Shown here: one piece after another, positions 1,246 to 61,861 of the stretch | How positions within the stretch are numbered: position 1 is the first letter of the stretch | Layout of the letters: each line of letters begins with the position of its first letter | Assembly (NCBI GenBank): GCA_029961685.1 | Contig: JARWKL010000009.1 | Location: forward strand, 32,733,708-32,797,707 | Direction of reading: 5' to 3' | Source of the DNA: Aristolochia californica | Lineage: Eukaryota > Streptophyta > Magnoliopsida > Piperales > Aristolochiaceae | Length of the DNA: 64,000 nucleotides | Program-made: the position numbers and the translations under genes | The notes under the pieces: model-generated | Database searches by the model: none | Told to the model about the DNA's origin: nothing | Seen by the model: only the letters and a program-made list of their open reading frames with translations

Positions 1246-1403
1246 CTGTTCCACATATCTCCAGCATACCACATCTCCAAAAAGCACTCCAAACCACGTT
1301 TTCTGAGGTAGGTAGCCTTGGCATCATCTTGAGAAGCTCGAATTCTTTGTGCCACCTCATCTCTTAGACCTGGACTTCCTGAGATTATAACAGCTCCAGC
1401 AAT
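1246..1403 (-). CDS. PHYLLO: PHYLLO exon 26: MenH continued, last exon in the window
   Basis: Residues 1545-1596 plus two bases. It contains IAGAVIISGSPGLRDE, then ECFLEMWYAGDMWN, typical of the MenH strand after the nucleophile elbow and its cap. I chose the acceptor AAAG/ATT because it aligns without gap to the SNKIEGAV region of Arabidopsis; a TAG six bases upstream (start 1409) would add Thr-Lys. The donor is AACAG/GTAATC. No further MenH exon was found in 1-1245. Confidence 0.9.

Positions 1404-61861: not shown

What the first reader, a model, noticed from the sequence alone, without database searches (positions are those of the whole stretch)
1246..61861. A 60-kb PHYLLO gene with an unbroken 1,596-codon frame despite at least 30 transposon insertions
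All 26 exons join with GT/AG borders and consistent phase, and the frame has no stop. About 4.8 kb of coding sequence is spread over 60.6 kb. Transposons fill nearly all of the extra length, yet none enters an exon, so the gene is very likely functional and under selection. The transcript must be spliced across at least seven introns above 2.5 kb.
Basis: partly seen in the sequence, partly recalled or inferred. Interest (0 to 1): 0.8.

Follow-up and report, generated by a model that had tools for sequence, protein, structure and literature searches.

The report
Intact pipevine PHYLLO gene, transposon-lengthened introns
This is the ordinary vitamin K1 gene PHYLLO of the California pipevine, intact as far as the window shows it and stretched to over 60 kb at least in large part by transposons lying inside its introns, a pattern already described for this plant group.

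Summary
The core observation holds, with corrections. On the minus strand 26 exons (61861 down to 1246) join through 25 complete GT-AG introns in consistent phase: 4,796 nt, i.e. 1,598 codons plus 2 nt, not 1,596. The translation equals the database protein "PHYLLO, chloroplastic isoform X3 [Aristolochia californica]" (1,713 aa), so the source is A. californica or a near-identical accession and the gene is already annotated. It is incomplete here: residues 1600-1713, with the presumed MenH Asp and His, lie beyond the window edge, which is why no stop is seen. No exon base is covered by detected transposon or repeat sequence; 9 of 9 introns of 2.4 kb or more contain it and 0 of 16 shorter ones do. 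Detected cover is 49% of intron bases, so "nearly all" is not shown, and the count of 30 is plausible but unproven. The protein shows no decay: 6 departures at 341 near-invariant positions, 5 shared with A. fimbriata. Long, retrotransposon-rich introns in magnoliids and Chloranthales, and L1 expansion in Aristolochia genic regions, are published. Verdict: real, correctly named, ordinary.

The parts
61703..61861 (-). exon 1 (residues 1-53; ATG at 61861; presumed chloroplast transit peptide)
   Evidence: exact match to P0001; transit peptide inferred from the database name 'chloroplastic'
61402..61614 (-). exon 2 (residues 54-124)
60657..60877 (-). exon 3 (MenF-like part)
55113..55227 (-). exon 4
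52586..52702 (-). exon 5
45591..45692 (-). exon 6
44661..44720 (-). exon 7
44266..44334 (-). exon 8
44056..44160 (-). exon 9 (start of MenD module)
43777..43971 (-). exon 10 (MenD; DERSLAF motif from residue 417)
38070..38168 (-). exon 11 (MenD)
25651..26217 (-). exon 12 (MenD, including the start of the middle domain)
23959..24183 (-). exon 13 (MenD)
23352..23654 (-). exon 14 (MenD)
19074..19141 (-). exon 15 (MenD; GDISFLHD from residue 856)
15600..15758 (-). exon 16 (MenD)
15122..15247 (-). exon 17 (MenD end)
14688..14819 (-). exon 18
14411..14528 (-). exon 19 (MenC N-terminal part)
   Evidence: the MenC_N match is below its curated cut-off
13338..13493 (-). exon 20 (MenC)
12945..13199 (-). 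exon 21 (MenC; KLKV 1186-1189 spans the border to exon 22)
9849..10016 (-). exon 22 (MenC)
9383..9526 (-). exon 23 (MenC)
8844..9299 (-). exon 24 (MenC end and the stretch before MenH; IKPS from residue 1294)
1641..1940 (-). exon 25 (MenH; GYSMG serine motif from residue 1526)
1246..1409 (-). exon 26 (MenH), last exon in the window; donor GTAATC from 1245; the gene continues beyond base 1
26218..38069 (-). intron 11, 11,852 bp, longest; 63% covered by detected transposon/repeat; six LINE-type clusters (taking 29203 and 29770 as one), copia-type pieces and a weak Ty3-type match
29203..31860 (+). decayed LINE (RVT_1, zf-RVT, RVT_3), antisense to the gene, in intron 11
   Evidence: one search counted 21 stops in 28501-31845
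46464..47748 (-). LINE 3' half (zf-RVT, RVT_3) in intron 5
48498..50517 (+). copia-type pieces in intron 5; 49589-50531 is 84% identical to 41513-42452 in intron 10. Only the intron 10 element has a Pfam match (RVT_2); the gag-like ORF 48498-48998 had none
2303..8567 (-). intron 24: possible old copia-type element with direct repeats 2303-2617 / 8245-8567 (77%) near its ends and other repeats inside; label from repeat layout and similarity among window ORFs; the three copia-type ORFs scanned from it had no Pfam match
10364..11725 (-). LINE tail (zf-RVT) in intron 21
57351..57946 (+). LINE-type fragment in intron 3

Best explanation
This is the PHYLLO gene of Aristolochia californica or a near-identical accession, present as 26 exons with the 3' end (114 residues) off the window. 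Shown: exon chain, frame, identity to the annotated protein, domain order (MenF-like N-half, MenD, MenC, MenH), and exons free of detected transposons. Inferred: the more than 60-kb gene is transcribed and spliced to an ordinary PHYLLO mRNA whose protein makes o-succinylbenzoate for phylloquinone in the plastid. Inferred: its length comes mainly from LINE and LTR-retrotransposon insertions tolerated in introns while insertions into exons were removed by selection, so that nine introns grew and sixteen stayed at 1,467 bp or less. Expression across transposon-bearing introns in Arabidopsis and rice involves IBM2-type factors (rice: abstract; Arabidopsis: search listing); I assume the same here, untested.
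For: Exact match to P0001 and 25 of 25 GT-AG introns. Pfam domains in order: TPP_enzyme_N, TPP_enzyme_M_2, TPP_enzyme_C, MR_MLE_C, Abhydrolase. MenD matches 2jlc over 368-956 (E 7e-74), and the N-part matches ICS1 (8w6v) only over chain residues 20-225. No exon base overlaps detected transposon or repeat; 9 of 9 introns of at least 2.4 kb have them and 0 of 16 shorter ones do. Pfam RVT_1, RVT_2, RVT_3 or zf-RVT in 9 of the 20 intron ORFs scanned (one, RVT_1 at 42713-43060, below its cut-off). Constraint; relative rate. A. californica assembly 661 Mb against 210 and 300 Mb for two congeners (PMC11334207, passages). LINE/L1 expanded in A. fimbriata, evident in genic regions (PMC8445822, passages). 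Over 10% of rice genes carry intronic heterochromatin, regulated through OsIBM2 (PMC7145194, abstract).
Against: No RNA evidence was available. The last 114 codons were not seen in DNA. P0001 may be a prediction from this very assembly, so the identity confirms annotation and species rather than giving independent proof of splicing. Detected transposon cover is 49% of intron bases and 55% of the nine large introns (27,390 of 49,548); the rest is unexplained sequence.
Confidence: 0.93

Rival explanations
1. The locus is a decaying or silenced copy that still has an open frame because the transposon load is recent; a compact expressed copy exists elsewhere.
For: The load is heavy, no expression data were available, the own-genome search never ran, and 8 of 68 repeat pairs are more than 85% alike.
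Against: 0 gaps and 6 departures at 341 near-invariant positions, 5 of them shared with A. fimbriata; fewer private changes than A. fimbriata with 4 of 4 outgroups; 60 of 68 repeat pairs are 85% alike or less, which suggests, without dating single insertions, that much of the load is old; no second entry named A. californica in the 120 listed hits or the 116.
Confidence: 0.03
2. Intronic L1 insertions were retained because they raise expression of PHYLLO, so part of the intron length is regulatory rather than neutral.
For: In A. fimbriata, genes with intronic LINE/L1 insertions are expressed higher than genes without (PMC8445822, passage); genes with long introns are expressed higher in Chloranthus, up to an intron length of 40 kb (PMC8626473, passage).
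Against: Those are correlations. Here the LINE pieces are fragmentary and split 7 to 7 between the strands, and one read in frame over 28501-31845 has 21 stops, as neutral accumulation predicts.
Confidence: 0.07
3. The large introns are partly assembly artefacts (chimeric join).
For: Long repeats can cause misjoins.
Against: Exon order is collinear with the protein through all 26 exons in one orientation. The published A. californica assembly uses HiFi reads with a mean of about 13 kb (PMC11334207, passage), longer than the longest intron; that the window comes from that assembly is an inference.
Confidence: 0.02

Closest known systems
PHYLLO of Aristolochia californica (P0001, isoform X3 as named in the database) and of A. 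fimbriata (P0002)
   Same: Protein identical to P0001 as far as the window reaches; same main Pfam domains in P0002.
   Different: Nothing against P0001. P0002 is 81% identical (1,380 of 1,712 aligned residues). Gene length in A. fimbriata was not available.
Plant PHYLLO (MenF-MenD-MenC-MenH fusion), PMC6189191, passages
   Same: Module order and content; here the MenF-like part is an N-half only.
   Different: None found in the protein; intron lengths of other PHYLLO genes were not compared.
Long genes with retrotransposon-filled introns in magnoliids and Chloranthales (PMC8626473, passages)
   Same: Long introns with transposons around a coding length close to that of other PHYLLO proteins.
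   Different: LINE-type pieces are the commonest transposon proteins found here; in Chloranthus spicatus LTR elements are named as the major contributor.
Genes with intronic heterochromatin controlled by IBM2 in rice (PMC7145194, abstract)
   Same: Transposon-rich introns in a gene expected to be active.
   Different: Chromatin state and dependence on IBM2 are unknown for this gene.

Membership tests
PHYLLO (plant menF'/menD/menC/menH fusion) | MenD module with TPP-binding N, middle and C domains | tested here: met
   PF02776 at 374-486, PF16582 at 553-785, PF02775 at 837-954; PDB MenD 2jlc E 7e-74
PHYLLO (plant menF'/menD/menC/menH fusion) | MenC module with its lysine motifs | tested here: met
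   PF13378 at 1171-1342; MenC_N match below its cut-off; KLKV 1186 and IKPS 1294 present; their catalytic role is recalled
PHYLLO (plant menF'/menD/menC/menH fusion) | MenH alpha/beta-hydrolase module with Ser, Asp and His | tested here: inconclusive
   GYSMG 1526 lies in exon 25; the presumed Asp (GEED 1650) and His (CGH 1687) are in P0001 but outside the window; roles recalled
PHYLLO (plant menF'/menD/menC/menH fusion) | N-terminal half of MenF without the chorismate-binding C-half | tested here: met
   Residues 85-276 match ICS1 8w6v chain 20-225 of 536 only; no chorismate-binding family among the 11 Pfam hits at E 0.001
PHYLLO (plant menF'/menD/menC/menH fusion) | Plastid targeting and activity in o-succinylbenzoate synthesis | not testable with these tools
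   Name 'chloroplastic' only; pathway from PMC6189191 (passages)
Gene with transposon-inflated introns | Long introns carry transposons, short ones and exons do not | tested here: met
   9 of 9 introns of at least 2.4 kb, 0 of 16 shorter, no exon base; cover ranges from 15% (intron 4) to 69% (intron 24)
Gene under IBM2-type control of intronic heterochromatin | Heterochromatic methylation in transposon introns, dependence on IBM2 | not testable with these tools
   needs methylome and mutant data

The most novel reading that the evidence does not exclude
PHYLLO in A. californica is a dosage-critical photosystem I gene whose full-length mRNA depends on an IBM2-type anti-silencing system at nine transposon-filled introns, so that vitamin K1 level in this lineage is set partly by intronic heterochromatin, possibly with L1 insertions acting as positive expression elements.
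Probability: 0.06. Interest if true: 0.5.

Novelty: already known. Interest (0 to 1): 0.15.

Why it matters
It is a clean single-gene illustration of how a species whose assembly is more than twice the size of two relatives' can carry long transposon-rich introns without loss of the protein. The authors of the genome paper call the size variation in the subgenus an open question. It does not change what is known of PHYLLO.

Tried and rejected
Second compact copy: not seen. One search scored 7,990 candidates and gave 604 full-length hits, 120 of them listed, one named A. californica (3 member sequences, 1 contig); some names are cut short and three of the 120 (P0004, P0018, P0099) have none. 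One search (MenD exon alone) gave 116 hits, the best 65% identical over 96% or more of the query and 72% over 40% (P0233, Erigeron); none is named A. californica, most carry no name. Unannotated copies cannot be excluded. The own-genome search was tried six times and never answered.

RNA genes: no Rfam match at gathering score in the 64 kb. Tandem arrays: 12 rows; the largest is a 127-bp perfect duplication at 17202-17455.

Remaining exon inside the window: a 5-residue match RKFRK near base 108 was checked; its context does not match and has stops, so taken as chance.

Frame change between exon 1 and exon 2: ATG and downstream part lie in different frames; resolved by an 88-bp GT-AG intron that the database protein also has.

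Results against my reading: 11 of the 20 ORFs sent to Pfam had no hit at E 0.001, among them the gag-like ORF at 48498-48998, 32082-32456, and the three copia-type ORFs scanned from intron 24. In one search (10 further ORFs, E up to 0.05) one transposon-type match appeared, below its curated cut-off (SH3_Tf2-1, 26809-27210), next to two weak unrelated ones (E 0.017 and 0.024). The copia labels outside 41109-41486 therefore rest on similarity among window ORFs and on my reading. About half of the intron length has no transposon evidence. 95 of the 114 sequences have fewer departures at near-invariant positions than P0001 (6, median 3), though A. fimbriata has 7. Six of 120 homologues were dropped by a length filter of 1,480-1,800 aa. 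first put the last exon end at 1245 and counted 1,599 codons; one search moved it to 1246.

Full report
What was checked. The finding describes a 60-kb PHYLLO gene. Translation of the minus strand shows MenD-, MenC- and MenH-like peptides in order. A search with a rough join of these peptides found plant PHYLLO proteins. The top hit, P0001, is named 'protein PHYLLO, chloroplastic isoform X3 [Aristolochia californica]', 1,713 aa, 94% identical to my rough query over 88% of it, ahead of A. fimbriata at 78% and Magnolia sinica at 66%. With P0001 as guide, its residues are found exactly in the window from 1 to the end of exon 26, and the borders resolve to 26 exons and 25 GT-AG introns. The window is therefore from A. 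californica or a near-identical accession. The species name rests on this identity, not on a label of the window.

Corrections. The coding sequence in the window is 4,796 nt over 60,616 bp, 1,598 complete codons plus two bases of the next. The last exon ends at 1246 before a GTAATC donor. P0001 has 114 more residues, and they were not found in the window: the best hit has E 0.30. Eight introns exceed 2.5 kb; the longest is 11,852 bp.

Transposons. Pfam finds reverse transcriptase, zf-RVT or RNase-H-like domains in 9 of the 20 intron ORFs scanned, and none in the other 11. Using 24 ORFs of the window as tblastn queries gives 31 clusters, 30 of them in introns. Self-comparison gives 68 repeat pairs, 51 of them 60-85% alike, 9 below and 8 above that. 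Together these cover 27,390 of 55,820 intron bases (49%) and no exon base. Every intron of at least 2.4 kb (9 of 9) is hit, with cover from 15% to 69%, and no shorter one (0 of 16). By hand I count about 14 LINE-type insertions, about five copia-type elements (only one, at 41109-41486 in intron 10, backed by a Pfam match) and one weak Ty3-type match. The 14 LINE-type pieces split 7 to 7 between the strands.

Is the gene intact? Domains appear in the PHYLLO order, and the MenD part aligns over 368-956 to solved MenD structures. The MenF-like part aligns only to the N-half of a plant ICS1 (8w6v, chain residues 20-225 of 536), as expected for PHYLLO, whose isochorismate synthase activity is held to reside in a separate gene (recalled). 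Across 114 aligned homologues (of 120), 341 columns are at least 95% identical. P0001 departs at 6 of them and A. fimbriata at 7, five shared, and neither has a gap there; 95 of 114 sequences have fewer departures than P0001. In a relative-rate count A. californica has 58, 64, 58 and 67 private changes against 102, 85, 92 and 111 for A. fimbriata, with Magnolia, Amborella, Nelumbo and Telopea as outgroups (chi-square 12.1, 3.0, 7.7, 10.9). The protein under the transposon load is not changing faster than its relative. Automated gene models may inflate the A. fimbriata count, and constraint on DNA (dN/dS) was not tested.

Context. The A. californica assembly spans 661 Mb, over twice A. contorta (210 Mb) and A. 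fimbriata (300 Mb), and its authors call the cause of size variation in the subgenus open (PMC11334207, abstract and passages). In A. fimbriata, LINE/L1 elements have expanded, are evident in genic regions, and genes with L1 in introns show higher expression (PMC8445822, passages). Long genes and introns are prevalent in magnoliids and Chloranthales: introns in shared orthologs are given as 1,270-2,390 bp in six magnoliids and 3,681 bp in Chloranthus spicatus, and intron length correlates with genome size (PMC8626473, abstract and passages). In Cornus officinalis 11.7% of introns exceed 12 kb (PMC12860560, passages). In rice over 10% of genes have intronic heterochromatin, regulated through OsIBM2 (PMC7145194, abstract). 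The present gene fits these patterns. Intron lengths of other PHYLLO genes were not available for comparison.

Mechanism. Shown: splice-consistent exons, an intact frame as far as it is seen, and detected transposons confined to the large introns. Inferred: splicing of a primary transcript above 60 kb, selection against exonic insertions, and heterochromatin handling by IBM2-type factors.

Verdict. A real, intact and already annotated gene with an architecture known for the group. Interest is low.

Noticed in passing
introns 1-25 of the gene, 61702-1410: Intron phase is skewed: 20 of 25 phase 0, 5 phase 2, none phase 1; binomial P 0.014 against a recalled plant average of 57% phase 0.
   Followed up: partly
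17202-17455: Perfect 127-bp tandem duplication inside a LINE-type fragment in intron 15, probably recent.
   Followed up: no
62459-62908: Repeat with an 85-bp internal duplication starting about 640 bp upstream of the ATG, partly similar to 4704-4799 in intron 24; no Pfam match.
   Followed up: partly
1246 (exon 26 end): A. fimbriata has WNSFRRHANF where isoform X3 of A. californica has WNRHPNF; this may mean an alternative 3' splice site 9 nt away at the exon beyond the window.
   Followed up: no
exon 25, residue 1478: Asp to Asn at a near-invariant MenH position shortly before PGHG, shared by both Aristolochia species.
   Followed up: no
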